Positions 24,852 to 57,028 of a stretch of DNA of 64,000 nt are shown piece by piece. The translations under genes were made by a program, and so were the position numbers. The notes below the pieces were generated by a model that worked only from the letters and a program-made list of their open reading frames with translations, had not been told where the DNA came from and searched no databases. Each line of letters begins with the position of its first letter. Within the stretch, counting starts at the first letter, position 1. The stretch comes from Rhodoligotrophos sp. CJ14 (GTDB lineage Bacteria; Pseudomonadota; Alphaproteobacteria; Rhizobiales; Im1), in contig NZ_CP133319.1 of the NCBI RefSeq assembly GCF_038811545.1, forward strand, positions 4,166,001 through 4,230,000. The letters are read 5' to 3'.

Positions 24852-24905
24852 TTGACAAGTCCCGCCGGCCTTGGCAATGATTGATGACCCACGAGTCATC
24901 AATCA
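24852..24905 (+). promoter_or_regulatory. Promoter and 28-bp palindromic operator of the first Liv operon
   Basis: TTGACA (24852-24857) is an ideal -35 box; AATGAT (24876-24881) is a 4/6 -10 box at 18-bp spacing. TGATTGATGAC (24878-24888) and GTCATCAATCA (24895-24905) are perfect 11-bp inverted arms around 6 bp. The palindrome covers the -10 box and the expected start of transcription, which is the classic position for TetR repression. Confidence 0.75.
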
Positions 24906-24927
24906 GATAACGAAGCACAGGGGCGTG

Positions 24928-25917: not shown

Positions 25918-26648
25918 CGGATCTCCTGGAGATGCGCGACGTCTCGGTGCGCTTCGGTGGCCTTGCCGCGGTCTCGAATGCAAGCCTCACCATCGCCCCG
26001 CGGGAAGTGCATGCGCTCATCGGCCCGAATGGCGCCGGCAAGAGCACGGTCATCAACTGCATTTCCGGATTTCAGCGCCTTGCCGCGGGCGAGCTCTTTC
26101 TGAACGCGGTACCCTTGGCGCATATGGCCCCCTCGGCGGTCGCGCGCCGCGGCATCGCCCGCACCTTTCAGACCCCACAGCTGTTCGGCCGCTTGAGCGT
26201 CGCCGACAATATCCGCGTCGCCCATCAGCGGCTGAACCGTGCCGAAACGGGCGTAGCTCCGCTCAGCGTCGAGGAGCTGGTGAGGCTGGTCGGGTTGAGC
26301 GGAAGCGAAGATGTGCCCGCTGAGCGCCTGGCCTATGGCCAGCAGCGTCTGCTGGAAGTGGCGCGCGCCTTGGCCACCGCACCGCGACTGCTCCTGCTCG
26401 ATGAGCCCGCCGCGGGACTAAGCAGCGAAGAGGTCGATCGGCTCGCGAGCCTCGTCCGCATGATCGCGGGCGAGCTTGGAATTTCGGTGCTATTCGTCGA
26501 GCACAACGTGCCGCTCGTACGCCGCATCGCTGATCGCATCACCGTCATGAACCACGGCCTCGTCATTGCGGCGGGCGCACCGGAGGACGTGCTGGCCGAT
26601 CCCGCCGTGATCACCGCCTATCTCGGCACCGCCGCGGTGGAGCATTAG
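25914..26648 (+). CDS. ABC transporter ATP-binding protein (LivG-like)
   Basis: A 244-residue ATPase. Walker A is GPNGAGKST, the Q loop is RTFQTPQLFG, and Walker B is LLLLDEPAAGLSSEE. The signature is reduced: where LSGGxQ is expected the sequence has LAYGQQRLLEVARAL, as in most LivG proteins. The ATG overlaps the livM stop. Substrate choice depends on the binding proteins encoded downstream. Confidence 0.93.
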   Translation: MTDLLEMRDVSVRFGGLAAVSNASLTIAPREVHALIGPNGAGKSTVINCISGFQRLAAGELFLNAVPLAHMAPSAVARRGIARTFQTPQLFGRLSVADNIRVAHQRLNRAETGVAPLSVEELVRLVGLSGSEDVPAERLAYGQQRLLEVARALATAPRLLLLDEPAAGLSSEEVDRLASLVRMIAGELGISVLFVEHNVPLVRRIADRITVMNHGLVIAAGAPEDVLADPAVITAYLGTAAVEH

Positions 26649-26650
26649 CC

Positions 26651-27349
26651 ATGTTGCAGGTCGAGAGGATCGAGATCGCCTATGGGGCCGCAACCGCGAT
26701 CCGGGACGTGTCCTTCACCGTGCCGCCAGGCCAGGTGACGGCGCTGCTCGGTGCGAATGGTGCGGGAAAGACCACCATCATGCTCGGCCTGTCGGGCCTC
26801 TTGCCGGTGAAGGCCGGCCGTATCCTCTTCGACGGGGTGCCCCTCGAGACCCGCGACAGCGAGCAGCGTCTAAAGCTCGGCATCGCCCAGGTTCCGCAAG
26901 GCCGGCAGGTCTTTCCCGAGATGACGGTCATGGAAAACCTGGAACTCGGCGCTTTCGTGCGACGTGATGCTGAGATTACGACGGACCTCGCCCGTATATT
27001 GGACCTCTTTCCCCGCCTGGCCGAACGCGCCGGCCAGTTCGCCGGCACCTTGTCCGGTGGCGAGCAGCAGATGCTGGCGATCGGGAGAGCCCTCATGGCC
27101 CGCCCCAAGCTGCTGCTTTTGGATGAGCCCTCCTTAGGGCTCGCGCCCTTGGTTGTCGACATGGTCTACGAGGTCATCGGGCGTCTGGCCACCGAAGGCC
27201 TGTCGATCCTGCTCGCAGAACAAAATGTGACGAAGGGCCTATCGGTCGCAACCCAAGGCTTCGTCCTCGACCATGGCGCGGTGATCGCCGGCGGCCCGGC
27301 CCAGGGGCTCGCCACCACTGATTTCGTACGGAAGGCCTATCTGGGTTAG
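26651..27349 (+). CDS. ABC transporter ATP-binding protein (LivF-like)
   Basis: A 232-residue ATPase. It has Walker A GANGAGKTT, signature LSGGEQQMLAIGRALM, Walker B LLLLDEPSLGLAP and the LivF-type LAEQNV switch. It begins 2 bp after livG and completes the two-ATPase engine of the importer. Confidence 0.93.
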   Translation: MLQVERIEIAYGAATAIRDVSFTVPPGQVTALLGANGAGKTTIMLGLSGLLPVKAGRILFDGVPLETRDSEQRLKLGIAQVPQGRQVFPEMTVMENLELGAFVRRDAEITTDLARILDLFPRLAERAGQFAGTLSGGEQQMLAIGRALMARPKLLLLDEPSLGLAPLVVDMVYEVIGRLATEGLSILLAEQNVTKGLSVATQGFVLDHGAVIAGGPAQGLATTDFVRKAYLG

Positions 27350-27405
27350 CTGGCCCTGCGCTCGCAGTGGCCTCGAATGTTTCGACGCGAAGGAGATTTC
27401 AGAGG

Positions 27406-28620
27406 ATGAGTTTGCGTTCAGACACCGCAGTGGCGATCGCCGGGGTCGGGGAGACCGCGGTCGGCAAGCTGCCGGGACGGCATTCCACCAGCCTGTATAT
27501 CGAGGCGGCCAAGCGCGCGATAGAGGATGCGGGGATCGATAAATCCGAGATCGACGGCCTTTTGACCACCGCTTCCGTGGTGGACGACAACGTCCGGCAT
27601 CATATCGTGATTGCCGAGCATCTTGGCCTGTTCTGCAAGACCCTGTGCGATACTCTGCGCACCGGCGGTGCAGCTTTCGGTTATGCCCTGCAGCTTGCGC
27701 AATGGGCAGTTCAGTCGGGCCGCTGCCGCGCCGTGCTGGTGGTCTCCGCCGATAATCTGCTCACCGGCCCGGGTCAGGGGCAAGGCGTTACGGCCTATAC
27801 TGAGCTAGGCGCCCACTCCCTCGAATTCGAGGTGCCTTATGGGGCGCATATCCCAGCCTTCTATGCGCTTGTGGCACAGCGGCACATGCATGAATACGGC
27901 ACGACCCCCGAGCAGCTGGCAGCCATAGCGGTTGCCTGCCGCAAGCATGCCTCTCTCAACCCGGCGGCCCAGAAGCGCGAGCCGATCACTATCGATGACG
28001 TCCTCAACTCGCGCATGATCTCGACGCCCTTGCGGGTGCTCGACTGCAGCCTCATTTCCGATGGCGGCGGCGCCTTCATCGTCACCTCCCTCGAGCGCGC
28101 CCGCGATCTGAAGCAGAGGCCGATCCGCGTGCTCGGCACTGGCCAGGCGCAGTCCTACTATCACATGGGCCATCTTGCCGGCGGAATCGGCTTGCCCGCC
28201 GATCGCCACGGCGCCTTCAACCTGACCAATACGGTTCAGACCGTGGCTGCGCGGGATGTGTTTGCCGAAGCCGGCATCACTCACGCCGATATCGACGTGG
28301 CGCAGATCTACGACAGCTTCACGATCACGGCCTTGATGCAGTTCGAGGACCTCGGCTTCTGCAAGAAGGGAGAGGGCGGGGCGTTTGTGGAAGGTGGCCG
28401 TATCGAGCTCGGCGGTGAGCTTCCCGTCAATACCCATGGCGGCCTTCTCTCCTTTGCCCATCCCGGCATGCCCGGCGGCATTTTTCACGTGACCGAAGCG
28501 GTTCGCCAGCTCCGCCACGAATGTGGTGTGCGTCAGGTTCCCGATGCGCAAGTCGCCCTGGCCACCAGCGTCAGCGCGGTCGCGTCAAACCACTCCATCT
28601 GCCTCCTTGGAAGGGATTGA
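27406..28620 (+). CDS. Thiolase-fold protein without the nucleophilic Cys (SCP-x/Ltp2-like)
   Basis: A 404-residue thiolase-superfamily protein of the lipid-transfer type. Thiolases carry the nucleophile in a CxxG motif near residue 85; here the equivalent stretch is TLRTGGAA, with Leu84 at the Cys position. It keeps IYDSF (301-305), NTHGG (342-346) and AHPG (352-355), as in aldolase-type Ltp2 relatives. The partner DUF35 gene starts 5 bp after its stop. It may cleave or form a C-C bond in a CoA thioester rather than act as a thiolase. AGGAG at 27391 supports the start. Confidence 0.85.
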   Translation: MSLRSDTAVAIAGVGETAVGKLPGRHSTSLYIEAAKRAIEDAGIDKSEIDGLLTTASVVDDNVRHHIVIAEHLGLFCKTLCDTLRTGGAAFGYALQLAQWAVQSGRCRAVLVVSADNLLTGPGQGQGVTAYTELGAHSLEFEVPYGAHIPAFYALVAQRHMHEYGTTPEQLAAIAVACRKHASLNPAAQKREPITIDDVLNSRMISTPLRVLDCSLISDGGGAFIVTSLERARDLKQRPIRVLGTGQAQSYYHMGHLAGGIGLPADRHGAFNLTNTVQTVAARDVFAEAGITHADIDVAQIYDSFTITALMQFEDLGFCKKGEGGAFVEGGRIELGGELPVNTHGGLLSFAHPGMPGGIFHVTEAVRQLRHECGVRQVPDAQVALATSVSAVASNHSICLLGRD

Positions 28621-28625
28621 TCGAA

Positions 28626-29039
28626 ATGGTCGATGTCATGCCCACCATCCCGCCGCGCCCAACCGACATATCCAAGCCCTTTTGGGATGGCTGCCGGGAT
28701 CATCGCCTGCTGATGCAGCAATGCCAGGACTGCCGCACCGTCACCTTCTATCCCGTCTATATGTGCCCGAGCTGCGCGAGTGAGCGCCTCGAATGGGTCG
28801 AGCTCAGCGGCCGTGGCCATGTGCACTCGGTGACGACCGTCCACCGTCCCTCGGCCCCGGCTTTTGCCCCGGCCGTCCCTTACGTGCTGGCGCTGATCGA
28901 GGTAGCCGAGGGGCCGATCATGATGAGCAATATTGTCGGACCCGATGCCTTGTCGACCCAGATCGGCGATGAGGTGGCCGTGGTGTTCGAGGATGTCGGC
29001 GAGGTCACTCTGCCGCGATTCCGGCGCGTGGGGGCCTGA
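28626..29039 (+). CDS. DUF35 OB-fold / zinc-ribbon acyl-CoA-associated protein
   Basis: A 137-residue protein with a rubredoxin-like zinc ribbon (CQDC ... CPSC, about residues 36-57) and an OB fold after it (GRGHVHSVTTVHRPSAP). DUF35 proteins partner thiolase-fold enzymes and help bind the acyl-CoA. Its place directly after the thiolase-fold gene and one base before the ligase start supports this. Confidence 0.9.
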   Translation: MVDVMPTIPPRPTDISKPFWDGCRDHRLLMQQCQDCRTVTFYPVYMCPSCASERLEWVELSGRGHVHSVTTVHRPSAPAFAPAVPYVLALIEVAEGPIMMSNIVGPDALSTQIGDEVAVVFEDVGEVTLPRFRRVGA

Positions 29040-29040
29040 A

Positions 29041-30642
29041 ATGCAGACCTTCGTTGATCTCGCTGAGCGGGTGGCCCTTCGGGGAGATCACGTGCTGTCC
29101 TACGAGGGCCTGAGGTTTCGCGGCACCGATGTCGTTGCCGAAGCAAAACGCCTCGCCCGGGCGCTGCTGGCCGACGGCGTCCAGCGCGGCGATCGTGTGT
29201 GCGTCTGGCTCCCCAACGGGCCGGAATTCGTCTTGCTCGAGCTCGCCACCACCATCATCGGCGCGATCTTCGTGCCGATCCACAGCCGCTATGGCGCGGT
29301 CGAGCTTGGCAATATCCTGCAGCGCGCAAAGCCCGTGGCCTTGTTCTATCGCAAGAGCTTTCGCGATGTGGATTTCGAGACCATCCTCGAGAAGGCGCAC
29401 CCTCCCGTCAGCTCCAGTCGCTTTGGCGATGGAAAGGGCCCGGTCCCTGAGCTGCGCCGGCTGGTCTCGCTCGATGGCAGCCGCTTCCCGGCAGTGGACG
29501 ATTGGGCGCGCTTCCGCGAGCGCGCCGAGAAAACATCCGAGACCGCGCTCGATCGTGCGATGGCGCGCGTTGCACCCTCCGATCCGGCAATCTGCATCTT
29601 CACCAGCGGCACCACAGGCATGCCGAAGGGGGCGATGCTCAGCCACGGCGCCATCCTGTTCACCGAGCAGCATGTGGGCGACATTCTTGAGATCGCGCCA
29701 AAGGAGCGGGTTCTCTACGGGGCGCCAATGCCCTCCGTCTTCGGCTGCTGCAATGCGCTCGTCGCCAGTTGGACTCATGATGCCTGTTTCGTGCTGATGC
29801 CCACCTTCGATGCCGGCGAAGCGTTGAAAACGATCCAGCGCGAGGCATGCAACGTGATCTACGGCGTGCCCACCATGTTCCACATGCTGCTCAACCACCC
29901 CGATTTCGCGCCGGCCCGCACCCGCTCGCTCCGCTCCGGCATCGTCGGTGGCGCGCCCTGTCCGGTGACACTCGCCGATGCCATCGTGAACCGGCTCGGC
30001 GTGCGCCACCTGGTGAGCGGCTATGGCATGTCGGAAACTTGCGCGATCATGACCGCAACCCGGATCGGCGATACCCTCGAGGTCGTCACCGGCACCGTGG
30101 GCCGGCCTCTTCCCGATGTGGAGATAAGAATCTGCGGTCCAGACGCGATCGGTGCGCTGGGTGAGGAGCAGGAGGGCGAGATCTGCGTGCGTGGACGCAA
30201 TCTCATGCTCGGCTATTTCAATGGCGAGCCAGAGCTTGCCAAGCCCTTCACCGAGGGCTGGTTCCGCACCGGGGATCTCGGCATGTTGCGCCGCGATGGC
30301 AATCTGCGCATCACCGGCCGCGTCTCCGACATGATCCTGGTGGGCGGCTTCAATGTCTATCCCGTCGAGATCGAGAACCTGCTCGCGAGACATCCTGATG
30401 TGATCCAGGCCTATGTGGTCGGCATTGAGGATGAGCGCTTGGGCGAACGCCCGGTCGCCTTCGTTCAGGCCCGCCCGGGAGCTGAGGTCGACCCGGATGA
30501 GCTCTCCAGGTTTTGCGTGGAAAACCTTGCGAAATACAAGCTCCCGGCCCGCTTCTTCATGGTCGAGAGCTTTCCGATGACACCCCTCGGCAAGGTGCAG
30601 AAGTTCGAACTCAAGAAGATCGCCAAACAAGCCATGGCATGA
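29041..30642 (+). CDS. AMP-forming acyl-CoA synthetase
   Basis: A 533-residue ANL-superfamily ligase that activates a carboxylic acid to its CoA thioester through an acyl-AMP. The phosphate-binding motif TSGTTGMPKG is near 188-197. SGYGMSETCA is the A5 region, GWFRTGDLG the A7 motif, GRVSDMILVGGFNVYP the hinge, and PLGKVQKFELK holds the late catalytic Lys. The acid is unknown. It starts directly after the DUF35 stop (TGAAATG). Confidence 0.93.
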   Translation: MQTFVDLAERVALRGDHVLSYEGLRFRGTDVVAEAKRLARALLADGVQRGDRVCVWLPNGPEFVLLELATTIIGAIFVPIHSRYGAVELGNILQRAKPVALFYRKSFRDVDFETILEKAHPPVSSSRFGDGKGPVPELRRLVSLDGSRFPAVDDWARFRERAEKTSETALDRAMARVAPSDPAICIFTSGTTGMPKGAMLSHGAILFTEQHVGDILEIAPKERVLYGAPMPSVFGCCNALVASWTHDACFVLMPTFDAGEALKTIQREACNVIYGVPTMFHMLLNHPDFAPARTRSLRSGIVGGAPCPVTLADAIVNRLGVRHLVSGYGMSETCAIMTATRIGDTLEVVTGTVGRPLPDVEIRICGPDAIGALGEEQEGEICVRGRNLMLGYFNGEPELAKPFTEGWFRTGDLGMLRRDGNLRITGRVSDMILVGGFNVYPVEIENLLARHPDVIQAYVVGIEDERLGERPVAFVQARPGAEVDPDELSRFCVENLAKYKLPARFFMVESFPMTPLGKVQKFELKKIAKQAMA

Positions 30643-30654
30643 TGGGAGGAAGAG

Positions 30655-31866
30655 ATGAACTTGAAGCGGATCTTACTGGCGGCTGTGCTTGCCACGGCGC
30701 CTTCGGCCGTGATCGCGGATGATTTCGGCGTCACCGAGACGGCCATACGCATCGCGGTGCAGGATTCCCTCAGCGGTGCCTATTCGCAATATGGCGTGCC
30801 GAGCCTCAATGGCGTCCGCTATGTCTTCGACAAGGTGAATGCCGAAGGTGGGATCAACGGCCGTAAGATCGAGGTCGTTGCCGAGGATGACGGCTGCTCG
30901 CCCAAGCAATCGGTGGGGGTGGCAACCAAGCTTGCCTCCGAGCGCTCTGTGCTCGCGGTCATGGGGCTGACCTGCTCGGCGGCCGCGATCGCCGTGCGTG
31001 ATACGGTGGCCCCCACGACGCCCATGCCGTTCATCTCCTTTTCCAGCGGCGGCTATACATCGAGCTCGCCCGACCTCGGCGGCCTGAAGGAGAATTTCTT
31101 TTTCATCACCCCCTCCGTTCACACCCAGGGCGGCGCGCTCGTGAACTTCGTCATGAATACGCTGAAGCCGCAGCGGGTCGCTTTCATCGGCCAGACCGAT
31201 GTCTATGGCAAGGAAGGCCGTCAGGGTGTCGAGGCCATGCTCGCCGAATACGGCCAGAAGATCATCGCCGATGACACGATGGAGCCCCGCGGCACTGACG
31301 CAACCGCCCAGGTTCTGAAGCTGAAAGCGGCCAATCCCGATGTGGTGATCGCGTTCCTCTATCAGGTCCCGGCCCAGATCCTGCTCCGCCAGGCCAATGA
31401 GCTGGGCTTGAAGGCGACCATTGTCACCTCCGCCTCGGTGACTGATAGCAGCATCTACAAGTCGCTGCCCCCGGCGGCGCTTGAGAACTACTACGGAAGC
31501 ATGATGGCAAAGGACGTGCTGGACAGCGCCAGAATGAAGCCGATCATGGATGATCTGCGCGCCCGCTATCCCGATGTCACCTTCAATCCCCTGGTCGTGT
31601 CCGGCATCGGCGCCGCCGAGCTCATGGTCGAGGCATTGCGCAGCCTCGGCAAGGACGTGACGCCCGAGAAACTCGCCAAGGCCATCGACCAGAGCAAGGA
31701 TGTGAAGACCAGCGCGCTCAGCTATCCCGTGACCTTCACACCCGAGAACCACATGGGCGGGCGCGGGCTCGGCATCTACGAGATCAAGGACAATGCCGAG
31801 GTCCTCGCCATGCCGGGCTATTGGCCGGGAACGGAGAAAGCCTCCGAGCCCGTAGTGGCGAACTGA
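30655..31866 (+). CDS. ABC transporter substrate-binding protein (LivK-like)
   Basis: A 403-residue periplasmic type I binding protein. It has a Sec signal peptide (MNLKRILLAAVLATAPSAVIA), then the family start IRIAVQDSLSGAYSQYG and VNAEGGINGRKIEVVAEDDGC. GGGAGGAAGAG precedes the ATG. It lies between the ligase and livH genes inside the operon, so it is the main candidate for the receptor of this importer. Confidence 0.93.
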   Translation: MNLKRILLAAVLATAPSAVIADDFGVTETAIRIAVQDSLSGAYSQYGVPSLNGVRYVFDKVNAEGGINGRKIEVVAEDDGCSPKQSVGVATKLASERSVLAVMGLTCSAAAIAVRDTVAPTTPMPFISFSSGGYTSSSPDLGGLKENFFFITPSVHTQGGALVNFVMNTLKPQRVAFIGQTDVYGKEGRQGVEAMLAEYGQKIIADDTMEPRGTDATAQVLKLKAANPDVVIAFLYQVPAQILLRQANELGLKATIVTSASVTDSSIYKSLPPAALENYYGSMMAKDVLDSARMKPIMDDLRARYPDVTFNPLVVSGIGAAELMVEALRSLGKDVTPEKLAKAIDQSKDVKTSALSYPVTFTPENHMGGRGLGIYEIKDNAEVLAMPGYWPGTEKASEPVVAN

Positions 31867-31870
31867 TCCA

Positions 31871-32749
31871 ATGACCCTCTCGATGCTGCCGCAGCTGATG
31901 GTTGCGGGCGTGGTCAGCGGATCGATCTATGCTCTGGTTGCCTTGGGTCTCGTCATCGTGTTCAAGGCAACCGGCGTGATCAATTTCGCCCACGGCACCA
32001 TGATCATGCTCGGCGCCTATCTTGGTGTCACCGCCGCGGGCCCTCTCGGCCTCAGCTACCCCCTGGCGATCGTAGTGGCGGTCGCCGTGGTGGCGGTGAT
32101 CGGGCTTGCCATCAACGAGAGCGTTTACCGGCCGCTGCTGACAGCACCTCATATCGTTCAGGTGCTCGCCACCCTGGCGATCGCCAATGTACTGAGCGGC
32201 TCGATCCATCTCCTCTGGGGGTCCAACAGCTATAGTTTCGCACCCAGCGAGCGGATGAGCCCCGTGATGGTCAACCCTCTCGTGATCACCGGCCAGCAAT
32301 TGCTCATCGTGCTGAGTGCGATCGCGGCCATGGCGGCACTGGCGGCCTTCTTCCGCTGGACGCGATGGGGCAAGGCGATGCGGGCGCTTTCGCAAAACGA
32401 GCGCGGCGCCAATCTCTGCGGGATCAGCACCGGTAAGGTCTTCCGCATCGCGGTGACCACCGGCGCGGCATTCGGCGCCGTTGCCGGCGTGCTCTATGCG
32501 CCTTTGACCCTCGTGGATCCAAGCTTTGGCTGGCTTCTCATCAAGGGCTTTGCCGCCGCGGCGCTGGGCGGGCTTGCGAGCCTGCCGGGCGCTGTGGTGG
32601 GCGGCATCGTGCTGGGACTGTGCGAAAGCCTGTGGGTGGCGGTGCTGCCGGCGCTTTGGGCACCGAGCCTCAGCTATCTCATCATCATCGCGGTCCTGCT
32701 GATCAAGCCAACCGGCGTGTTTGGCACGCCTTCCGGCCAGAAGCTTTAG
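31871..32749 (+). CDS. Branched-chain amino acid-type ABC transporter permease (LivH-like)
   Basis: A 292-residue permease with about eight hydrophobic segments. GSIYALVALGLVIVFKATGVINFAHG in pieces is the family's N-terminal signature; ALGGLASLPGAVVGGIVLG is the late one. It supplies the second permease of the complex, though it is separated from livMGF by four genes, an uncommon order. Confidence 0.93.
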   Translation: MTLSMLPQLMVAGVVSGSIYALVALGLVIVFKATGVINFAHGTMIMLGAYLGVTAAGPLGLSYPLAIVVAVAVVAVIGLAINESVYRPLLTAPHIVQVLATLAIANVLSGSIHLLWGSNSYSFAPSERMSPVMVNPLVITGQQLLIVLSAIAAMAALAAFFRWTRWGKAMRALSQNERGANLCGISTGKVFRIAVTTGAAFGAVAGVLYAPLTLVDPSFGWLLIKGFAAAALGGLASLPGAVVGGIVLGLCESLWVAVLPALWAPSLSYLIIIAVLLIKPTGVFGTPSGQKL

Positions 32750-32765
32750 CCCTCGGGGAGCCATC

Positions 32766-34367
32766 ATGATGCAGATTGCCGGCGAAACCGTACCCTGGAA
32801 TTCGATACACGAGCTGTTGCGTGCCCGCGCGCTTGCCCATGGCGACAAGCCGCGCGTGGATATTGCGGGCACGGTGACCTCCTGGGGCGAGCTCGACCGG
32901 CTCTCCGACACCATGGCCGCGACCCTCCATGCCGGTGGTATCGGCAGGGGTGACCGCGTCTGCAGCATGATGGCGGGCCGCATCGAGCAGCTGATCACCT
33001 GGTTTGCCGCGGTGAAGCTCGGGGCCATATGGGTGCCGCTCAACACCGGGCTGATTGGCGATGATCTCGTCTACACCGTGCGGGATGCGGCCCCCAAGGT
33101 GCTCATCGTCGAGGCCGAAACGGCGGAGCGCTTCCGCAACTGGCCGGACGAGGTGCCCTTGCCCGCTGCGCGCTATTCGACGGAGCCCGCGCCGGGCTTT
33201 CGCTCCTGGCAGGAATTGCTCAGCGGGCGCTCAACCCCACCAGCGGTCACGGTCATGCCGAACGAGCCCGGCGTGATCATCTATACCGGCGGCACCACTG
33301 GCCGGCCGAAAGGCGTCGTGCTGCCTCATTTCGCATTCATCGCCGCCGGCTACCGCTTCCGCGATGCCTTCGACGTCACCCCTGATGATCACCAATTCTC
33401 GGTGCTGCCGCTCTTTCATGTGGGCGGCACCATGCTCGGCATCATGGGGCCGCTGGTGAGCGACATTCCAACGACCCTCGAGCGGAAATTCAGCGCGAAG
33501 AACTTCTGGCCGCGCGCGAGGGCGAGAGAGGCAACCCTCACCGATCCCGTGGGCACCATGGTGACCGTGCTCACCCAATTGCGGGAAAGTCCGGATGATC
33601 GCGCCCATCGCGTGCGTGCAGCGGTGGGTGTGACCGGGCAGGTGCCGCCCGATGTGGCGCCGACCTTCGAGCGCCGCTTCGGGGTGAAACTCGTCAACCT
33701 CTATTCACTCACCGAGGCCGGTGGCGTGCTCATCACCTATACCAAGCCCACAAGCGCCCGACCGGATGCCCATGGCGAGCCGGGGCGCTGGGCGGATTTC
33801 CGCATTGGCGACGCCTATGACCAGGAACTGCCGCCCGGAGAAATCGGCGAGATCCTGCTGCGGCCGCGCGTGCCCTACACCTTCATGCTGCGCTACCACA
33901 ATGCCCCCGAGCGCACGCTCGAATGCTGGTCGAATTTCTGGCTGCACACGGGTGATCTCGGCCGCATCGATCAGGATGGCTTTCTGCATTTCGTCGGCCG
34001 CCAGGCTCACTGGCTGCGCTGCCGCGGCGAGAATGTCTCCGCATACGAGGTCGAGACGGTGGTCGCGCGCTGTCCCGGTGTCGCCGAGGTGGCTGTCGTC
34101 GGAGTGCCGTCTGAGCTCGGTGAGGAGGACGTGAAGGTGTTCGTCATCCCCGATCAGCAGCATGCGCTGACCCCGGAGGATATTGTTGCCTGGTGCCGCA
34201 CTCGGCTCGCCAAGTTCAAGGTGCCGCGCTTCGTGGAGTTCGTCAGCGATTTCCCGCGCTCGGCTGCCAAGCAGGAGGTTGAGCGACACAAGCTGCGGGC
34301 GCTTCCGAACGACAAGGCCTGGGATGCGCAAAAGCCGGTGTCGGAGAAGAAAGGTCTTTCACAGTAA
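32766..34367 (+). CDS. AMP-forming acyl-CoA synthetase
   Basis: The second ANL-family ligase of the operon, 533 residues. The P-loop is YTGGTTGRPKG near 172-182, with Gly-Gly where the first ligase has Ser-Gly. Other motifs are YSLTEAGG, WLHTGDLGRIDQDGF and RGENVSAYEVE. The final catalytic-lysine region is SAAKQEVERHKLR. It resembles crotonobetaine/carnitine-CoA ligase-like members; the substrate is unknown. GGGAG precedes the ATG, and the stop overlaps the MaoC start by one base. Confidence 0.92.
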   Translation: MMQIAGETVPWNSIHELLRARALAHGDKPRVDIAGTVTSWGELDRLSDTMAATLHAGGIGRGDRVCSMMAGRIEQLITWFAAVKLGAIWVPLNTGLIGDDLVYTVRDAAPKVLIVEAETAERFRNWPDEVPLPAARYSTEPAPGFRSWQELLSGRSTPPAVTVMPNEPGVIIYTGGTTGRPKGVVLPHFAFIAAGYRFRDAFDVTPDDHQFSVLPLFHVGGTMLGIMGPLVSDIPTTLERKFSAKNFWPRARAREATLTDPVGTMVTVLTQLRESPDDRAHRVRAAVGVTGQVPPDVAPTFERRFGVKLVNLYSLTEAGGVLITYTKPTSARPDAHGEPGRWADFRIGDAYDQELPPGEIGEILLRPRVPYTFMLRYHNAPERTLECWSNFWLHTGDLGRIDQDGFLHFVGRQAHWLRCRGENVSAYEVETVVARCPGVAEVAVVGVPSELGEEDVKVFVIPDQQHALTPEDIVAWCRTRLAKFKVPRFVEFVSDFPRSAAKQEVERHKLRALPNDKAWDAQKPVSEKKGLSQ

Positions 34368-34819
34368 TGCAGTCGCTTTTCTACGAGGACTTCCATGTCG
34401 GCCAGGTCTTTGAAAGCCCTGGTCGGACGGTCACCGACACCGACCTGTCCATGTTCTGCATGCTCTCCGGTGACTGGCATCCGGTTCACTCGGACGAGGA
34501 ATACGCAAAGTCTACGCAGTTCGGACGGCGGATCGTCGGGGGCGTCTTTGGAATTGCGCTGGTTACCGGCGCGATGAGCCGTTGGGGAATCTTCGACGAT
34601 TCCGTCATCGCCATGCTGTCGATCGATGATTGGCGCTTTCATGCACCTATTTTCATCGGCGACACCCTGATGGTGACGATGACCATCACAGAAAAGAGGC
34701 TGACAAGCAGCGGCCAGCTCGGGGTCATCGACCGACGTTTCGAGATCAGCAACCAGACCGATGCCCTCGTTCAGGAGGGCCGCTCGGCATGCCTGATCAA
34801 GCTGCGCGCGCACCACTGA
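34367..34819 (+). CDS. MaoC family (R)-specific enoyl-CoA hydratase-like protein
   Basis: A 150-residue hotdog-fold protein. The hydratase motif is intact: Asp36 and His41 in SGDWHPVHSDEEYA, then FGRRIVGGVFGIAL. It would hydrate an enoyl-CoA made from the acid activated by the neighbouring ligases. It is translationally coupled to the ligase gene. Confidence 0.9.
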   Translation: MQSLFYEDFHVGQVFESPGRTVTDTDLSMFCMLSGDWHPVHSDEEYAKSTQFGRRIVGGVFGIALVTGAMSRWGIFDDSVIAMLSIDDWRFHAPIFIGDTLMVTMTITEKRLTSSGQLGVIDRRFEISNQTDALVQEGRSACLIKLRAHH

Positions 34820-34847
34820 TCAATCATCAGGAATAGGGGAGGAAAAG

Positions 34848-36050
34848 ATGAGGAAGGCACTGGCAATTGTCGTCGCGGCCATAGCCGCTTTCGGCTTTGG
34901 CGCATCCGCGCGCGCTGAAGAGCCGATCAGGATCGGCATTCTCAACGATCAATCAGGCCCCTATTCGGCAATCGACGGGCCGACCTCGGTGGATGCCGCC
35001 CGCATGGCGGTGGAGGATTTCGGCGGAACCGTGCTTGGCCGCAAGGTGGAGGTGGTCTCGGCCGACCATCAGAACAAGGCGGATGTCGGCTCGACCATCG
35101 CGCGCAAATGGTTCGACGTCGACGGCGTGACCGCCATTCTGGACGTGGCCGTGTCATCCGTGGCGCTTGCCGTGCAGGAACTGGCCCGCGAACGCAACAA
35201 GATCGTCATCTATTCCGGTGCGGGCACCTCCGATCTCACCGGCAAGGCCTGCTCGCCCACGAGCGTTCACTGGACCTATGACACCTATGCGCTCACCGCC
35301 GGCACCAGCCGAGCAATCGTCGGCCAAGGGGGTGACAGCTGGTATTTCATCAGCTCCGACAACGCCTTCGGCCAGGCCTTGCAGCGCGATTCGACCAAGG
35401 CGATCACCGCTGCCGGCGGCAAGGTGGTGGGCAGCGTGCTGCACCCCTACGGTACGCCGGATTTTGCAAGCTACATCCTCCAGGCGCAGTCATCGGGAGC
35501 AAAGGTTGTGGCCCTTGCCAATGCGGGCGAGGACACCAAGAACGCCATCAAGACCGGCACCAGCATGGGCATGACCGAAACCCAGCAGATGCTGGGGCTT
35601 CTGACCCTCTTGCCGGACGTGCATGGCCTCGGCCTCGATGCGGCCAAGGGGCTTCTCGTCACCGAGTCCTTCTACTGGAACATGAATGACGAGACCCGGA
35701 GCTGGTCTAAGCGCTTTTTCGAGCGCAACAACGTGATGCCCCATATGGTGCCGGCAGGCGTCTACGGCAGCGTCATGCACTATCTCAAGGCGGTGAAGCA
35801 GGCGGGCACCACCGAATCGGCTGTCGTGATGAAGGCCATGAAGGAGATGCCGATCAACGACTTCATGACCAAGAACGGGCACATCCGTGAGGATGGCCGT
35901 GTGCTCCGCGATTTCTACATCTTCCGCGTGAAAGCGCCCGATCAGGCAAAGGAGCCTTGGGACTATTACGAGCTTGTTGCGACCATTCCAGCCGATCAGG
36001 CCGCACGCCCCCTCGCCGAGAGTGAATGTCCGCTGATCAAGAACCAGTGA
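34848..36050 (+). CDS. ABC transporter substrate-binding protein (LivK-like)
   Basis: A 400-residue binding protein with signal peptide MRKALAIVVAAIAAFGFGASARA. The mature start is IRIGILNDQSGPYSAIDGP, and DSWYFISSDNAFGQALQ is the inter-lobe region. It is the last gene of the operon and differs clearly from the binding protein at 30655. The importer may therefore serve two ligands. GGGGAGG precedes the ATG. Confidence 0.92.
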   Translation: MRKALAIVVAAIAAFGFGASARAEEPIRIGILNDQSGPYSAIDGPTSVDAARMAVEDFGGTVLGRKVEVVSADHQNKADVGSTIARKWFDVDGVTAILDVAVSSVALAVQELARERNKIVIYSGAGTSDLTGKACSPTSVHWTYDTYALTAGTSRAIVGQGGDSWYFISSDNAFGQALQRDSTKAITAAGGKVVGSVLHPYGTPDFASYILQAQSSGAKVVALANAGEDTKNAIKTGTSMGMTETQQMLGLLTLLPDVHGLGLDAAKGLLVTESFYWNMNDETRSWSKRFFERNNVMPHMVPAGVYGSVMHYLKAVKQAGTTESAVVMKAMKEMPINDFMTKNGHIREDGRVLRDFYIFRVKAPDQAKEPWDYYELVATIPADQAARPLAESECPLIKNQ

Positions 36051-36057: not shown

Positions 36058-36086
36058 CAAGCTCGCCTCAGGCATAGGCGAGCTTG
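36058..36086. terminator. Strong bidirectional hairpin at convergent gene ends
   Basis: CAAGCTCGCCT (36058-36068) and AGGCGAGCTTG (36076-36086) are perfect 11-bp arms with a 7-nt loop. They lie between the binding-protein stop and the coding end of the alcohol dehydrogenase, whose stop codon (36068-36070) and last codons form part of the stem. No T tract is present on either strand. Confidence 0.7.
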
Positions 36087-37276
36087 AGGATCGCGAGCGC
36101 ATCCGCTTGCGTCTTCACGGGCCGGATATTCGCCTGCACGAAGGCATTGCCGAGGCTGGTCTCGGCAATGCGGCTAAGCGCCTCTTCCGGCACGTCGAGC
36201 TGCGAAATGCGTGTCGGAAGGCCGAGCCCGGCGATGAAGTCGCGCACCGCATCCGCCGCCTTCACGCCCGGCCGGTTGAATGCGGCTGCGATTTCCGCCT
36301 GCCGCTCGGACGACATTGGCTCGTTATAGGTCAGGACTGCCGGCAACAGCACACAGGAGGTGATGCCATGCGGAACACCTGCCACCGCTCCGAGCTGGTG
36401 ACCGAGCCCATGGCTTGCACCATAAGGGACGCGGCCGATCGTCGATCCGGCAAGCCAGACCCCGAGCTGGCAATGATGACGCGCTGCAATACTATTGGGT
36501 TGGGCGTGCGATCCGCGAAGCCCCTCCTGCAAGAGCTTGAGGCCGCGCAGCGCGAGCGCATCGGTGAGCGGGGTCGCATCTCGCGACAGCACGGCCTCGA
36601 TGCCGTGATCAACCGAGCGGATCCCCGTCGACAGCCACAGATCCGGTGGCGTCTCCGCGCCAAGCCATGGATCATAGACCACCACATCCGGCGCGAGCGT
36701 CTCGGACCGGAAGATATGCTTGATGCCGGTCGTCATGTCCGTTGCCCCGCCGATAATGCCGAACTCGGCCGCCGACAATGTGGTCGGCACCGCGATGATC
36801 GGCAGGGATCCAGGCTCGGGCAGGCGGCGCCCGCTCTGATCCCCGCGCAGACCGAGCAGGCCTTCCCTGTCCCTTTGTCCCGCGGCGATCGCAAGTCGGG
36901 CGATCTTGGCCGCGTCGATGGCGCTGCCGCCCCCGAACACCACGATCAGGTCCGGGTTGAGCCGGTCGATCGTTTCAACGAGGTCCAGCACGACCTCGAG
37001 CGGCGTGTGCGGCTTCAGCGCGCTGAATACCGGGCAGGTGGAGGAGCCGAGGCGAGCAAGCGTGTTCTGCACGGTCCGGTTGGCAAGAAGCGACGAGGTT
37101 ACGACCGGCAGCACCCTACGTGCCCCACGCTCGGAGGCAAGGCGCGAAATCGCCTCCTCGGCATGACATCCATAATGGACGATCGGAAGACGGAACAGGT
37201 TGAGCATCCCGGCCCCAATGGCGGGATCAGCTTCGATCTTCGGTGGATTTGCGCTCAACTGCTGCCCTCCCATCAT
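36068..37276 (-). CDS. Iron-containing alcohol dehydrogenase / maleylacetate reductase family
   Basis: A group III dehydrogenase of about 400 residues. VVFGGGSAIDAAKI binds the dinucleotide, and PTTLSAAEFG follows. The metal-site region reads GIRSVDHGIEAVLS, with later histidines in GASHGLGHQLGAVAGVPHG. The RSVDH pattern is nearer to maleylacetate reductases than to Fe-alcohol dehydrogenases. Starts at ATG 37276 or TTG 37258 are possible; GGGAGGG six bases before the TTG favours the latter. It is divergent from the MaoC-thiolase operon and separates it from the Liv operon. Confidence 0.88.
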   Translation of the reverse strand: MMGGQQLSANPPKIEADPAIGAGMLNLFRLPIVHYGCHAEEAISRLASERGARRVLPVVTSSLLANRTVQNTLARLGSSTCPVFSALKPHTPLEVVLDLVETIDRLNPDLIVVFGGGSAIDAAKIARLAIAAGQRDREGLLGLRGDQSGRRLPEPGSLPIIAVPTTLSAAEFGIIGGATDMTTGIKHIFRSETLAPDVVVYDPWLGAETPPDLWLSTGIRSVDHGIEAVLSRDATPLTDALALRGLKLLQEGLRGSHAQPNSIAARHHCQLGVWLAGSTIGRVPYGASHGLGHQLGAVAGVPHGITSCVLLPAVLTYNEPMSSERQAEIAAAFNRPGVKAADAVRDFIAGLGLPTRISQLDVPEEALSRIAETSLGNAFVQANIRPVKTQADALAILKLAYA

Positions 37277-37444
37277 CCTGCACCGGGTGCACCCGCTACC
37301 GCGGTGTCCGATTTGCATTCGAACCTAACCTATTCTGGCGGCTGACAATAACCCGTGAGGTGATCACTTGCTAATGCTCATCCATGTCAAATCCCGATCT
37401 CGCCTTGAAGCTGCACGCGCCGTGCGGTCTCGAAAGGCCAGGTC

Positions 37445-37843
37445 ATGAGCGGGCAACCCTTTTGGACCTTCGACCGCTTCGAGCCCGGCGCGCTGGTGGG
37501 AGAAAGCGAACTCGTACTCGATCGCGAGCAGATCCTGCGGTGGAAGCTCTTGTTTCCCGGCGAAAACCAGGCGGAGGCAGCCCCGCCGGGGCTTCTAATT
37601 GCCATGCTGATGAAGGGCTATATGCAAGTGATCGCATCGCGGCCACCCGGAAACGTGCATGCCGGACAAAGCCTCCGCTGGACCGGCGCGCGCGTGACTG
37701 AAGGTGCCCGCCTCAAAGCTCGCTTTCACTGTCTCGACAAGGAAATCCGGAAAGAGCGGCGCTGGCTTCACCTCTCCGCTGAGCTCTCCGCCGGTGGAAC
37801 ACCGGTCCTGTCCGGTGAGATGACCATGTTATGGGCGGCTTGA
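37445..37843 (+). CDS. MaoC-like hotdog protein lacking the hydratase motif
   Basis: A 132-residue hotdog-fold protein beginning MSGQPFWTFDRFEPGALVG. The Asp-x4-His pair of active MaoC hydratases cannot be found. It is probably the non-catalytic half of a heteromer with the next gene product, as small MaoC-like proteins are in some steroid-degradation hydratases. The gap to the next start is 13 bp. Confidence 0.75.
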   Translation: MSGQPFWTFDRFEPGALVGESELVLDREQILRWKLLFPGENQAEAAPPGLLIAMLMKGYMQVIASRPPGNVHAGQSLRWTGARVTEGARLKARFHCLDKEIRKERRWLHLSAELSAGGTPVLSGEMTMLWAA

Positions 37844-37856
37844 GGGGAGGGCGACA

Positions 37857-38267
37857 ATGAACGCAACAGACCACGAATGGCCCAGGCAACTCGCTCCGGT
37901 GAGCCTCACCGCCAATGCAGAATCGATCGCGCTCTACGCGGAGCTCACCTCGGACTTCAACCCCATCCATCTCGATGCGGAATTCGCAGCGGGCACGCCG
38001 TTCGGCAAGCCCATTGCCCATGGCACCATGGTGCTCAATCTCGTCTGGATCTCGCTGAGTGAGACCTTTCCCCGCCTGGATTTGCCCTGGGCGGCTGAGA
38101 TCCGCTTTCTCAAGCCCGTCAAGATTGGCGACACCGTGACGGCCAGCGGATTGCTCAGTGAGCAGCCGGGCCGCTACGAGGTGGCCGTGCGCAACGAGGC
38201 TGGCGATATCGTCCTTGCGGGATCTGTTCAGCTCGATGCCGCAGGCCGGGGGAGGAGCGAGGCATGA
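37857..38267 (+). CDS. MaoC family enoyl-CoA hydratase-like protein
   Basis: A 136-residue hotdog hydratase with the intact motif Asp33/His38 in TSDFNPIHLDAEFA, then FGKPIAHGTMVLNL. The gene follows a MaoC-like gene without the motif and overlaps the thiolase-fold gene by 4 bp. Paired active and inactive MaoC subunits are known for bulky acyl-CoA substrates. Confidence 0.9.
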   Translation: MNATDHEWPRQLAPVSLTANAESIALYAELTSDFNPIHLDAEFAAGTPFGKPIAHGTMVLNLVWISLSETFPRLDLPWAAEIRFLKPVKIGDTVTASGLLSEQPGRYEVAVRNEAGDIVLAGSVQLDAAGRGRSEA

Positions 38268-39409
38268 CGGGCGCCTGGATTGCCGGTTTTGGACAGACCG
38301 ACTTCGGCCGTCTTGAAGGCCGTGACACCCTCGATCTCATGTCGCAGGCAGCTGGCTTGGCTCTGGACAATGCAGGCTTTGCCAGGGAAGAAATCGATGG
38401 CCTGCTGACTGGCTACTCGACCGCGTTTCCCCACCTCATGCTTGCCAATCTCTTTGCCGAGCATTTCGGCCTCCTGCCCAGCTATTGCCATGGCATCCAG
38501 ATGGGTGGCGCCACCGGTTGCGCGCTCATCATGCTGGGCAAGCTGCTGATCGAGGCCGGCCAGTGCCGTAACGTGCTGGTGGTCGCGGGCGAGAACCGCC
38601 TGAGCAATCCCGGCGGGCGCGACAGCGCAATCCAGACCTTGGCGCAGGTGGGCCATGCCGATTACGAAGTGCCCTATGGGGCAAGCATTCCCGCCTATTA
38701 CGGTCTGCTCGCATCGAGCTATATGGATCGCTACGGTCTCACTGAAGCGGATCTGGCGGAGCTCGCGGTGCTGATGCGGGCGAATGCTGCCCTCAATCCG
38801 CAGGCTCATTTGCGCGAACCGATCACGGTGGCGGACGTCTTGAGCTCGCGCCCCATCGCGACACCGCTGAAACTGCTCGACTGCTGCCCGATTTCCGATG
38901 GCGGTACGGCCGTGCTGCTGACCGCTGATGAGAACCGCGCCAAGGGCATCCGGCTTGTGGCGGCGGGCCAGGCCCATTTGCACCAGCATGTCAGTGCGAT
39001 CAGGGATATCAGCGACCTCGGGGCGTATCAGGCAGCACAGCGCGCCTTTGCTGGCTCCGGGCTGAAGACGGCCGATATCGAAATGGCCGGGATCTATGAT
39101 TCTTTCAGCATCACCCTGGCGATCCTTCTGGAAGAGCTCGGTCTCTGCGGCAGGGGTCAATCAGGTGCCGCCGCGCGGGCGGGCCGCTTCGGGCCAAAGG
39201 GCGAGTTGCCACTCAACACCCATGGCGGTCTGCTCTCTTTCGGCCATTCCGGTGTGGCCGGCGGTATGGCCCATCTGATCGAGGTCGCGCGCCAGATGGC
39301 CGGGGAGGCGGGGGAGCGGCAAGTGCAGAAGCAGCCGAAGACAGGCTTCGTTCACGGCGATGGCGGCGTGCTCTCCGCGCATGTCAGCCTGCTACTGGCG
39401 AGAGGATAG
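38264..39409 (+). CDS. Thiolase-fold protein without the nucleophilic Cys (Ltp2-like)
   Basis: A 381-residue thiolase-superfamily protein related to the one at 27406. The CxxG nucleophile site reads GIQMGGAT, with Ile78 at the Cys position. GIYDSF (276-281), LNTHGG and GHSG are kept. The position between a MaoC pair and a DUF35 gene matches the Ltp2 aldolase layout of steroid side-chain cleavage. A retro-aldol role is inferred, not shown. Confidence 0.85.
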   Translation: MTGAWIAGFGQTDFGRLEGRDTLDLMSQAAGLALDNAGFAREEIDGLLTGYSTAFPHLMLANLFAEHFGLLPSYCHGIQMGGATGCALIMLGKLLIEAGQCRNVLVVAGENRLSNPGGRDSAIQTLAQVGHADYEVPYGASIPAYYGLLASSYMDRYGLTEADLAELAVLMRANAALNPQAHLREPITVADVLSSRPIATPLKLLDCCPISDGGTAVLLTADENRAKGIRLVAAGQAHLHQHVSAIRDISDLGAYQAAQRAFAGSGLKTADIEMAGIYDSFSITLAILLEELGLCGRGQSGAAARAGRFGPKGELPLNTHGGLLSFGHSGVAGGMAHLIEVARQMAGEAGERQVQKQPKTGFVHGDGGVLSAHVSLLLARG

Positions 39410-39415
39410 GCTTTG

Positions 39416-39790
39416 ATGAAAGCCCTTATGGACGAATATCGGCAATATGCCCGCGAGGGCAGGATTGCCTATCAGCATTGCGAGAGCTGCGGCCACGATC
39501 AGGCCTTCATCCGGCCCTTCTGCGCCAAATGCGGTGAGACGCACCTGGCCTGGAGGATGGCCGCCGGCAGCGGCAAGGTCGCCGCACTGTCGGTCGTGCA
39601 CCGTGCGCCGACAGCGGATTATCGGGACAAGGTGCCTTATGCGATCGCCCTGGTCGATCTGGACGAAGGTTTGCGGATGATGGCGCATGCCCCGGTCGAC
39701 CTTGAGATCGGTGACAGTGTCAAGCTCAAGCTTGAGCCGCAGGATGGCGCCTATCTCGCGCGCTGCCAACGCCTCTCGTCGAGAGCGTGA
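39416..39790 (+). CDS. DUF35 OB-fold / zinc-ribbon protein
   Basis: A 124-residue partner protein for the thiolase-fold enzyme just upstream (6-bp gap). The zinc ribbon is CESCGHDQAFIRPFCAKCG (residues about 21-39). The OB fold includes GKVAALSVVHRAPTADYRDKVPY in pieces. It ends the operon; no hairpin is obvious before the convergent ABC gene. Confidence 0.9.
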   Translation: MKALMDEYRQYAREGRIAYQHCESCGHDQAFIRPFCAKCGETHLAWRMAAGSGKVAALSVVHRAPTADYRDKVPYAIALVDLDEGLRMMAHAPVDLEIGDSVKLKLEPQDGAYLARCQRLSSRA

Positions 39791-40890: not shown

Positions 40891-40895
40891 ACGTC

Positions 40896-49212: not shown

Positions 49213-49238
49213 AGCGGAAACGCTCTAAGAAGTCTTAG
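49213..49238. terminator. Paired hairpins between convergent genes
   Basis: AGCG-GAAA-CGCT (49213-49224) is a short stem with a GAAA tetraloop, and CTAAGA-AG-TCTTAG (49225-49238) follows at once. They fill the 27-bp gap between the acetyltransferase stop and the binding-protein stop and overlap the latter. Two-way termination is likely. Confidence 0.5.
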
Positions 49239-50461: not shown

Positions 50462-50500
50462 GAACCTTTCCTCCCATAGCTTCGTTCGGCGCGCGCGGAA

Positions 50501-52621: not shown

Positions 52622-52646
52622 GGGGCTCACCTATTCTGATGGGGGA

Positions 52647-53411: not shown

Positions 53412-53415
53412 GTCC

Positions 53416-56745: not shown

Positions 56746-56773
56746 CCACGCAAGACGTACCTCCCCAGGCACT

Positions 56774-56929
56774 GTTCTTAAATAAGAACGTCGTTCGTCT
56801 TTACGGACTTTAGCGGAACGGCTGCACATGTCAACGTGGGCTCGCACGTGAAGCGCGTTTTTCAGCGGGTGGAATATGACCGACGAGACTCCCGGCATAT
56901 CTGCTCAATCCGAACGTTCGTCATTCCGG
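56774..56929. promoter_or_regulatory. Palindromes and a repeated 15-mer in the divergent livH region
   Basis: GTTCTTAAATAAGAAC (56774-56789) is a perfect palindrome with 7-bp arms, and CGAACGTTCG (56911-56920) is another. CGTTCGTCTTTACGG (56792-56806) and CGTTCGTCATTCCGG (56915-56929) agree at 13 of 15 positions, 123 bp apart. They lie between the divergent livH and thioesterase genes and are candidate operators, perhaps for the TetR protein at 58481. Confidence 0.5.
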
Positions 56930-57028
56930 TTCAATGATCGAATATCGAAAACGAATTCGGATTAGAAAATGGATTGACCTTCGTGCGCTTAAGCCTTAGC
57001 CGATAGGCAATTCACGCTTTCCCGGGGA

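What the first reader, a model, noticed from the sequence alone, without database searches (positions are those of the whole stretch)
37445..39790. Split hydratase-aldolase operon: inactive MaoC, active MaoC, Ltp2-like, DUF35
In actinobacterial steroid degradation, a MaoC-like protein, a MaoC-DUF35 fusion and Ltp2 form one machine. Here the same parts occur with the MaoC and DUF35 halves as separate genes, in four tightly packed frames. With two Liv-type binding proteins and two acyl-CoA ligases upstream, this could be an unrecognised pathway for branched or cyclic side-chain acids.
Basis: partly seen in the sequence, partly recalled or inferred. Interest (0 to 1): 0.7.

Follow-up and report, generated by a model that had tools for sequence, protein, structure and literature searches.

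The report
Split hydratase–aldolase gene set, substrate unknown
Four neighbouring bacterial genes appear to encode a machine that adds water to a CoA-bound acid and then cuts the chain, built from the same kinds of parts as a known steroid-degrading machine but as four separate proteins and with a different active-site pattern; what it degrades is not known.

Summary
The four genes are real, in the stated place and order: a hot-dog protein without the catalytic motif (MaoC1), a MaoC hydratase with its Asp/His motif (MaoC2), a thiolase-fold protein lacking the thiolase cysteine, and a zinc-ribbon/OB protein (DUF35). I found the quartet in six more loci (Azospirillum, Roseovarius and a Paracoccaceae strain among them), in two gene orders. 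MaoC1 and MaoC2 are adjacent and co-directional in 13 of 13 loci compared; thiolase and DUF35 in 31 of 31 loci of close relatives, of which only one has MaoC1. Best reading: a heteromeric hydratase coupled to a retro-aldolase, working like ChsH1–ChsH2–Ltp2 or Shy–Sal, with the ChsH2 halves as separate genes. It is a member of neither family: the aldolase lies in a separate, well-supported clade and carries Gly/YDSF/His instead of YDHF+Tyr (Ltp2) or YDCY+Gln (Sal). A steroid substrate is not supported by what I tested. A neighbouring iron alcohol dehydrogenase (43% identical to one near the Azospirillum quartet) suggests a carbonyl product. The upstream ligases and Liv genes form another operon with its own thiolase–DUF35 pair and MaoC. 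New variant of a known kind; substrate, reaction and complex formation are unproven.

The parts
37445..37843 (+). MaoC1: 132-aa hot-dog protein without Asp/His dyad; proposed non-catalytic, substrate-binding hydratase subunit (counterpart of the ChsH2 MaoC half)
   Evidence: (no Pfam hit)
37857..38267 (+). MaoC2: 136-aa hydratase subunit with D33-F-N-P-I-H38 motif (counterpart of ChsH1)
38264..39409 (+). Thiolase-fold C-C lyase (proposed retro-aldolase): Gly82 in place of the nucleophilic Cys, Y278-D-S-F281, His328
39413..39790 (+). DUF35: zinc ribbon (CxxC...CxxC) plus OB fold; proposed aldolase partner, counterpart of the ChsH2 C-terminal half (start TTG 39413 or ATG 39416)
36068..37318 (-). 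Iron-containing alcohol dehydrogenase, divergent from the quartet; 42.6% identical over 357 aa to the one upstream of the Azospirillum quartet (L096)
37319..37444 (.). Intergenic region between the divergent dehydrogenase and the quartet; presumed promoter region, no consensus promoter reported in it
24871..36050 (+). Neighbouring, separate operon: LivM 24871, LivG 25842, LivF 26651, thiolase-like ThioA 27367-28620, DUF35A ~28626-29039, acyl-CoA ligase ~29041-30642, Liv binding protein 30655-31866, LivH 31871-32749, acyl-CoA ligase ~32766-34367, MaoC3 34367-34819, Liv binding protein 34848-36050 (starts marked ~ are my choice inside longer ORFs; that it is one operon is inferred from spacing; DUF35A is named by my reading and by its hits to DUF35 places)

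Best explanation
The quartet encodes a hydratase–retro-aldolase for a CoA-activated acid. MaoC1 and MaoC2 form a heteromeric enoyl-CoA hydratase: MaoC2 supplies the Asp33/His38 pair, MaoC1 has none and shapes the acyl-binding site. The 3-hydroxyacyl-CoA made is cut by the thiolase-fold protein, held by DUF35 in a 2+2 assembly as in Sal–Shy(DUF35). Without the nucleophilic Cys the enzyme should not do thiolysis. I propose Tyr278 as base on the 3-OH and His328 (perhaps with Ser280) as acid on the enolate, releasing acetyl- or propionyl-CoA and a carbonyl compound, which the divergent iron alcohol dehydrogenase may reduce or oxidise. Shown here: gene content, folds, motifs, recurrence, pairing, separate clade. 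Inferred: complex formation, the reaction, the roles of Tyr/His/Ser, the dehydrogenase's part. Unknown: the substrate.
For: All four parts by domain and fold. MaoC1 followed by MaoC2 on the same strand, gap -61 to +18 bases, in 13 of 13 loci compared (three of them, L061-L063, from one genus); D-x4-H absent from 12 of 13 MaoC1, the one match (L096) lying in a C-terminal strand and not at the motif place; DxNPxH in 11 of 13 MaoC2. Thiolase–DUF35 adjacent in 31 of 31 loci. Full quartet in 7 loci (window, L030, L059, L064, L093, L095, L096), order MaoC1-MaoC2-Thio-DUF35 (in L030 with an SDR gene inside) or Thio-DUF35-MaoC1-MaoC2. Acyl-CoA dehydrogenase genes, the preceding step, lie close by in L059, L064 and L095, CoA ligase genes in L030, L093, L095, L096. 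Gly at the Cys site, YDSF and His328 invariant in 26 of 26 aligned rows. Closest solved structures include Sal–Shy(DUF35) 9myr and Ltp2–ChsH2(DUF35) 6ok1. In print the Cys-less relatives Sal and Ltp2 are aldolases coupled to MaoC hydratases through DUF35 (PMC12329534, sections 9 and 11 part 1; PMC11321319, sections 2 and 10 part 1).
Against: The thiolase–DUF35 pair mostly lives without MaoC1: at E <= 0.01 the MaoC1 profile hit 1 of the 31 relatives' loci (L030, itself in the profile; several of these loci are cut by contig ends) and 0 of 10 other thiolase loci of the host. Of the 13 MaoC1–MaoC2 loci, 6 show no thiolase–DUF35 next door (one, L062, ends 265 bases after MaoC2; L066 has a DUF35–thiolase pair about 5 kb away). 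The proposed Tyr/His pair is not tested in any enzyme I read about, and Sal C304S is inactive (PMC12329534), so YDSF cannot work by the Sal mechanism. No acyl-CoA dehydrogenase is among the 30 window proteins scanned. Foldseek hits of the thiolase model include a true thiolase at rank 2 (6esq), so the fold does not decide. The order of the deeper forks in the tree is unresolved.
Confidence: 0.6

Rival explanations
1. It is a true bile-acid or sterol side-chain system: a diverged ChsH1–ChsH2–Ltp2 or Shy–Sal with ChsH2 split.
For: Same four parts; Ltp2–ChsH2(DUF35) and Sal–Shy(DUF35) are among the PDB hits of thiolase and DUF35.
Against: Separate clade from CtSal and TcLtp2 (100/99) and different catalytic letters. 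In the host no match at E <= 0.001 to the extradiol dioxygenase model TIGR03213, though the model rings weakly in 5 of 14 control genomes, and 8 KstD-model matches, none over the cut-off; neither search had a steroid degrader as positive control. I recognised no steroid genes among the neighbours of the quartets that I read, but did not search for them there.
Confidence: 0.1
2. MaoC1 is not a hydratase subunit but a thioesterase-like or other hot-dog protein, and MaoC2 is an ordinary homodimeric (R)-hydratase, as Shy works without an inert partner.
For: Shy's MaoC domain works as a homodimer (PMC11321319); the window MaoC1 has no Pfam hit; thioesterase-type models give weak hits, each in 1 of 9 MaoC1 members, best E 0.084 to 0.23; FapR and FlK (hot-dog, not hydratases) are among the Foldseek hits.
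Against: MaoC1 followed by MaoC2 in 13 of 13 loci; 7 of 9 MaoC1 members match FAS1_DH_region (E <= 10, best 2.4e-9); the best Foldseek hits are MaoC-type, with HadAB chains below them.
Confidence: 0.2
3. The thiolase-fold protein runs in the bond-forming direction (aldol condensation or acyl transfer, as PhlABC does), so the operon is biosynthetic.
For: PhlABC and MucABC contain a thiolase-fold protein and a DUF35-like protein.
Against: The Cys site is Gly here. The recurrent neighbours are uptake ABC or TRAP systems, CoA ligases, acyl-CoA dehydrogenases and aldehyde or alcohol dehydrogenases, which look catabolic.
Confidence: 0.1

Closest known systems
ChsH1–ChsH2–Ltp2 hydratase–aldolase (Mycobacterium, Thermomonospora; ORF40/42/43 of C. 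testosteroni TA441)
   Same: Catalytic plus non-catalytic MaoC, DUF35, Cys-less thiolase-fold aldolase: the same four functional parts
   Different: There the inert MaoC and DUF35 are one chain, here two genes. Ltp2 has YDHF + Tyr344, here YDSF + His328. Different clade. Substrate there a C3 steroid side chain
Shy–Sal (Comamonas, Stutzerimonas bile-acid side chain)
   Same: MaoC hydratase plus DUF35-bound aldolase with Gly at the Cys site; carbonyl product
   Different: Shy is one chain with DUF35 and MaoC and needs no inert MaoC; Sal needs Tyr302 and Cys304 (YDCY), its C304S variant is inactive; here YDSF, and His in place of Gln352
HadA–HadB / HadB–HadC mycolic-acid dehydratases
   Same: Two hot-dog proteins, one without catalytic residues (described in PMC11321319)
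   Different: Acyl-ACP and biosynthesis, no aldolase or DUF35 (recalled). Likeness seen here by fold only
IpfD–IpfE of ibuprofen degradation
   Same: SCPx-thiolase homolog plus a partner without known function, with a CoA ligase; removes the acyl-CoA group, propionyl-CoA (PMC6063337 and PMC9195938, passages)
   Different: No MaoC pair; acts on a dearomatised diol; sequences not compared here; that IpfE is a DUF35 protein is recalled
Benzoylsuccinyl-CoA thiolase BbsAB
   Same: Thiolase-fold + DUF35 pair as separate chains (7pxp)
   Different: A thiolase by name; weaker sequence match (E 3.7e-31 against 2.3e-49 for Sal)

Membership tests
ChsH1–ChsH2–Ltp2 | One MaoC with Asp/His dyad and one without | tested here: met
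   Window MaoC2 DFNPIH, MaoC1 no D-x4-H
ChsH1–ChsH2–Ltp2 | Inert MaoC fused to DUF35 in one chain | tested here: not met
   Separate ORFs with two genes between them
ChsH1–ChsH2–Ltp2 | Aldolase with YDHF and Tyr344 | tested here: not met
   YDSF and His328 in the aligned places
ChsH1–ChsH2–Ltp2 | Aldolase in the Ltp2 clade | tested here: not met
   Window protein in a 13-row clade (100/99) without TcLtp2; another host copy groups with TcLtp2 (96/91)
ChsH1–ChsH2–Ltp2 | Steroid ring-degradation genes in the host | tested here: inconclusive
   TIGR03213 0 matches; NF009479 8 matches, none over cut-off; no positive control
ChsH1–ChsH2–Ltp2 | Hydratase–aldolase complex | not testable with these tools
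Shy–Sal | MaoC and DUF35 in one chain, no inert MaoC | tested here: not met
   Separate ORFs, with a second MaoC-type gene
Shy–Sal | Catalytic Tyr302–Cys304 (YDCY) | tested here: not met
   Ser in place of Cys; Sal C304S inactive (PMC12329534)
SCP2-type or biosynthetic thiolase | Nucleophilic Cys | tested here: not met
   Gly in the window protein and in 26 of 26 rows
Thiolase-fold + DUF35 pair (PF22691 + PF01796) | Both domains in adjacent genes | tested here: met
MaoC (R)-hydratase (MaoC2) | PF01575 and D-x-N-P-x-H | tested here: met

The most novel reading that the evidence does not exclude
The clade holding the window protein is a third class of thiolase-fold CoA retro-aldolase, using a Tyr278/His328 pair instead of Tyr/Tyr (Ltp2) or Tyr/Cys (Sal). 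Joined to a naturally split hydratase it opens a non-steroid pathway for branched or cyclic acids in Alphaproteobacteria; as the aldolase–DUF35 pair without MaoC1 it also occurs in Betaproteobacteria and Actinomycetota.
Probability: 0.35. Interest if true: 0.6.

Novelty: new variant of a known kind. Interest (0 to 1): 0.45.

Why it matters
Shy works without an inert MaoC, which calls into question why other steroid hydratases keep one (PMC11321319), and why hydratase and aldolase are tied together at all is called unclear (PMC12329534). A natural version in which all four domains are free proteins lets each link be tested by leaving out one protein. If the Tyr/His reading holds, a group now annotated as thiolase or acetyl-CoA acetyltransferase would need renaming as aldolases, and a degradation route present in culturable bacteria such as Azospirillum would become visible.

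Tried and rejected
Ltp2 or Sal orthology: rejected by tree and motifs. Thiolase or acyl transferase by a Cys nucleophile: rejected, Gly at the site. Steroid pathway in the host: no support, but the test lacks a positive control. A link of MaoC1 to the N-terminal half of double-MaoC proteins (host L083, L030): no significant profile match (3.4 and 1.5 bits), while MaoC2 matches their C-terminal halves. MaoC1 profile against PDB sequences: 10 chains at E up to 10, none named a steroid hydratase. Census of MaoC1: one search gave 2 of 101 relatives; one search gave 16 of 385 class genomes at E <= 0.001, 6 of them (own genome included) below 1e-10; one search gave 8 of 398 phylum genomes at E <= 1e-8, own genome included, of which I opened only G733; the other six (E 1.4e-10 to 7.5e-9, open frames of 435-528 aa) were not opened. 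Foreign origin by G+C: quartet 0.63-0.64, 0.58-0.65 over 20000-46000, no sign. Promoter and terminator scan: nothing above chance. Conserved neighbours of the thiolase–DUF35 pair (AtuA, cyclase, NDP-forming ligase, transketolase halves, glycerol dehydrogenase) did not lead to one named pathway.

Selection to bear in mind: of the 12 loci fetched, alignment A4 used seven (L059-L064, L066), so their scores are by construction; L065 and L067-L070 were left out as weak matches. Of 31 thiolase loci, 24 went into alignment A3 and 12 into the tree. Of 40 plasmid hits listed (573 records matched), I opened 7; 3 of the 7 have the quartet. The 13 MaoC1–MaoC2 loci were found by MaoC1 or thiolase searches, so they are not a random sample. 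Names of genes in unannotated loci were given by my reading and BLAST hits; ten of them were checked by Pfam and held.
Full report
WHAT IS THERE. The four + strand ORFs are at the stated place: MaoC1 37445-37843, MaoC2 37857-38267, a thiolase-fold protein 38264-39409, DUF35 39413-39790 (start TTG 39413 or ATG 39416). Pfam names genes 2-4 and is silent on gene 1. Gene 1 was settled by an AF2 model (best model pLDDT 81.5, the other four 59-68, two-row alignment) whose best Foldseek hits are MaoC-type hot-dog proteins (PaaZ entry 6jql E 1.2e-5; further down HadAB 4rlj E 1.4e-4 and the Comamonas steroid hydratase 8vwr E 1.7e-4; FapR and FlK, which are not hydratases, also appear), and by a nine-member profile that hits an (R)-specific enoyl-CoA hydratase at 1.2e-9. 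Seven of the nine members match FAS1_DH_region at E <= 10, best 2.4e-9; the window member matches nothing.

SURROUNDINGS. Those form their own + strand run from 24871 to 36050: LivM, LivG, LivF, a second thiolase-like gene with its own DUF35, an acyl-CoA ligase, a Liv binding protein, LivH, a second ligase, MaoC3 and a second Liv binding protein. So the window holds two hydratase–lyase sets, and the quartet is probably its own transcription unit. After it comes an ABC ATPase ORF on the other strand (39829-41097; by my reading of the sequence, not scanned). None of the 30 window proteins scanned by Pfam is an acyl-CoA dehydrogenase; the window was not scanned throughout.

THE ACTIVE SITE. In 26 of 26 aligned rows (24 of 31 relatives, the window protein and ThioA) the place of the thiolase nucleophile is Gly, and YDSF and His328 are invariant. 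Aligned with solved relatives: Ltp2 has YDHF and Tyr, Sal has YDCY and Gln, a true thiolase has Cys, HDCF and His; the window protein has Gly, YDSF and His. The uncharacterised Sphaerobacter structure 4u4e, the best PDB match, has the same Gly, YDSF and His. PMC12329534 (sections 9 and 11 part 1 read) reports Tyr294/Tyr344 as catalytic in Ltp2, Tyr302/Cys304 in Sal, and that Sal C304S is inactive. Hence neither published mechanism fits as it stands; Tyr278 with His328 is my proposal. A 29-row tree puts the window protein in a 13-row clade (100/99), joined by the quartet thiolase of L064 (100/99), apart from Sal and Ltp2; deeper forks are unresolved. The quartet thiolase of the congener (L059) lies in another group, with 4u4e. 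The AF2 model of the window thiolase (pLDDT 87.3) matches 4u4e, 6esq, Sal–Shy(DUF35) and Ltp2–ChsH2(DUF35).

RECURRENCE. A thiolase query gave 31 genome loci, each with DUF35 next door, 31 of 31, but only L030 had MaoC1 (some loci are cut by contig ends). A MaoC1 query in relatives matched 2 of 101 genomes, the own one and a congener; in the class 16 of 385 at E <= 0.001, 6 of them below 1e-10; in the phylum 8 of 398 at E <= 1e-8. Reading neighbourhoods and seven plasmid loci, I find the full quartet in seven loci: window, L030 (Rhizobiaceae MAG; SDR between MaoC2 and thiolase), L059 (congener), L064 (same class), L093 (Paracoccaceae La 6 plasmid), L095 (Roseovarius indicus pRIdsm_01), L096 (Azospirillum sp. 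TSH58 p03). L093, L095 and L096 were not in the MaoC1 profile and score 86.5, 121.4 and 134.7 bits. In 13 of 13 MaoC1–MaoC2 loci both genes are on one strand with gaps of -61 to +18 bases (L061-L063 come from one genus, and the overlaps depend on the start chosen). DxNPxH is in 11 of 13 MaoC2 (not L066, L080). MaoC1 lacks D-x4-H in 12 of 13; the one match (L096) lies in a C-terminal strand.

NEIGHBOURS OF THE QUARTETS. Acyl-CoA dehydrogenase in L059, L064 (Pfam) and L095 (annotation); crotonase in L064, L095, L096; NDP-forming ligase in L030, L093, L095 and AMP ligase in L030, L095, L096; Liv transporter in L096 and TRAP in L095; aldehyde and alcohol dehydrogenases in L030 and L093; iron alcohol dehydrogenase in the window, and in L096 (43% identical to the window's, Pfam); L093 has an annotated 1,3-propanediol dehydrogenase 29% identical to it. 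This looks like a catabolic set with carbonyl-handling enzymes, as expected if the lyase leaves an aldehyde or ketone. It does not name the substrate. Without MaoC1, one more relative (L031) also has zinc alcohol and aldehyde dehydrogenases nearby.

THE HOST. The window's genome (4.81 Mb, one contig) has 12 thiolase-like matches. Around the 10 not in the window, 8 have a DUF35 neighbour (not L089 and L091), so 10 of 12 with the window's two; ligases, acyl-CoA dehydrogenases and Liv transporters are frequent there (BLAST hits). No other copy has MaoC1. One (L083) sits by a double-MaoC protein, a fused counterpart of the MaoC1–MaoC2 idea, though its N-terminal half does not match the MaoC1 profile. 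Of three closest genomes, one congener has the weak MaoC1 match (34%), the other congener and the one of the same family have none.

KNOWN SYSTEMS. ChsH1–ChsH2–Ltp2: inert MaoC plus DUF35 in one chain, partner ChsH1, aldolase Ltp2 (PMC11321319, sections 2 and 10 part 1). Shy–Sal: one chain with MaoC and DUF35, no inert MaoC. In TA441 a mutant with the ChsH2 halves expressed apart kept both activities (PMC12502768: abstract, introduction part 1 and passages read); its Figure 1 legend mentions a gene for a DUF35 protein in one of the compared clusters, so a natural split in a steroid cluster may already be drawn there, which I could not see. Bile-acid review PMC8399759 and ibuprofen papers PMC9195938 and PMC6063337 were seen in passages only. 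None of the papers listed by searches (open-access library) was seen to deal with this quartet.

VERDICT. Real, recurrent, works most likely as a split hydratase–retro-aldolase (0.6), not a member of the Ltp2 or Sal families, steroid substrate unlikely (0.1). New variant of a known kind; interest 0.45 because the substrate and the complex are unproven but directly testable.

Noticed in passing
window 27367-29039 and 34367-34819: A second thiolase-like/DUF35 pair plus a single MaoC inside a Liv-transporter and ligase operon; looks like a second, different hydratase-lyase set. A DUF35-thiolase-MaoC set with related genes (thiolase 44%, MaoC 34% identity) is on an Achromobacter plasmid (L097).
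   Followed up: partly
G000:C1:95775-96881 (L005, context L084): Host thiolase-like copy that groups with Ltp2 (96/91), with YDNF and a Tyr near the Ltp2 Tyr344 place; BLAST hits for acyl-CoA dehydrogenase, crotonase and DUF35 next to it.
   Followed up: no
L009, L010, L011, L012, L021, L092: Close relatives of the thiolase-DUF35 pair lie by AtuA-family genes (Pfam in L009; annotation in L092; the rest by clustering) and an NDP-forming acyl-CoA ligase.
   Followed up: no
L093 and L094: Thiolase-DUF35 and an NDP-forming ligase beside transketolase-type genes, a short-chain dehydrogenase (in L093 annotated kduD) and glycerol dehydrogenase, in an alphaproteobacterium and an actinobacterium.
   Followed up: no
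L066, L080: A second MaoC1-like subfamily (PPGVLHAQE) with MaoC partners lacking DxNPxH; by my reading near MmgE/PrpD and TctC-type genes.
   Followed up: no
window 49235-63687: Further Liv binding proteins and a permease with an NDP-forming acyl-CoA ligase (50501-52630): another uptake-activation cluster.
   Followed up: no
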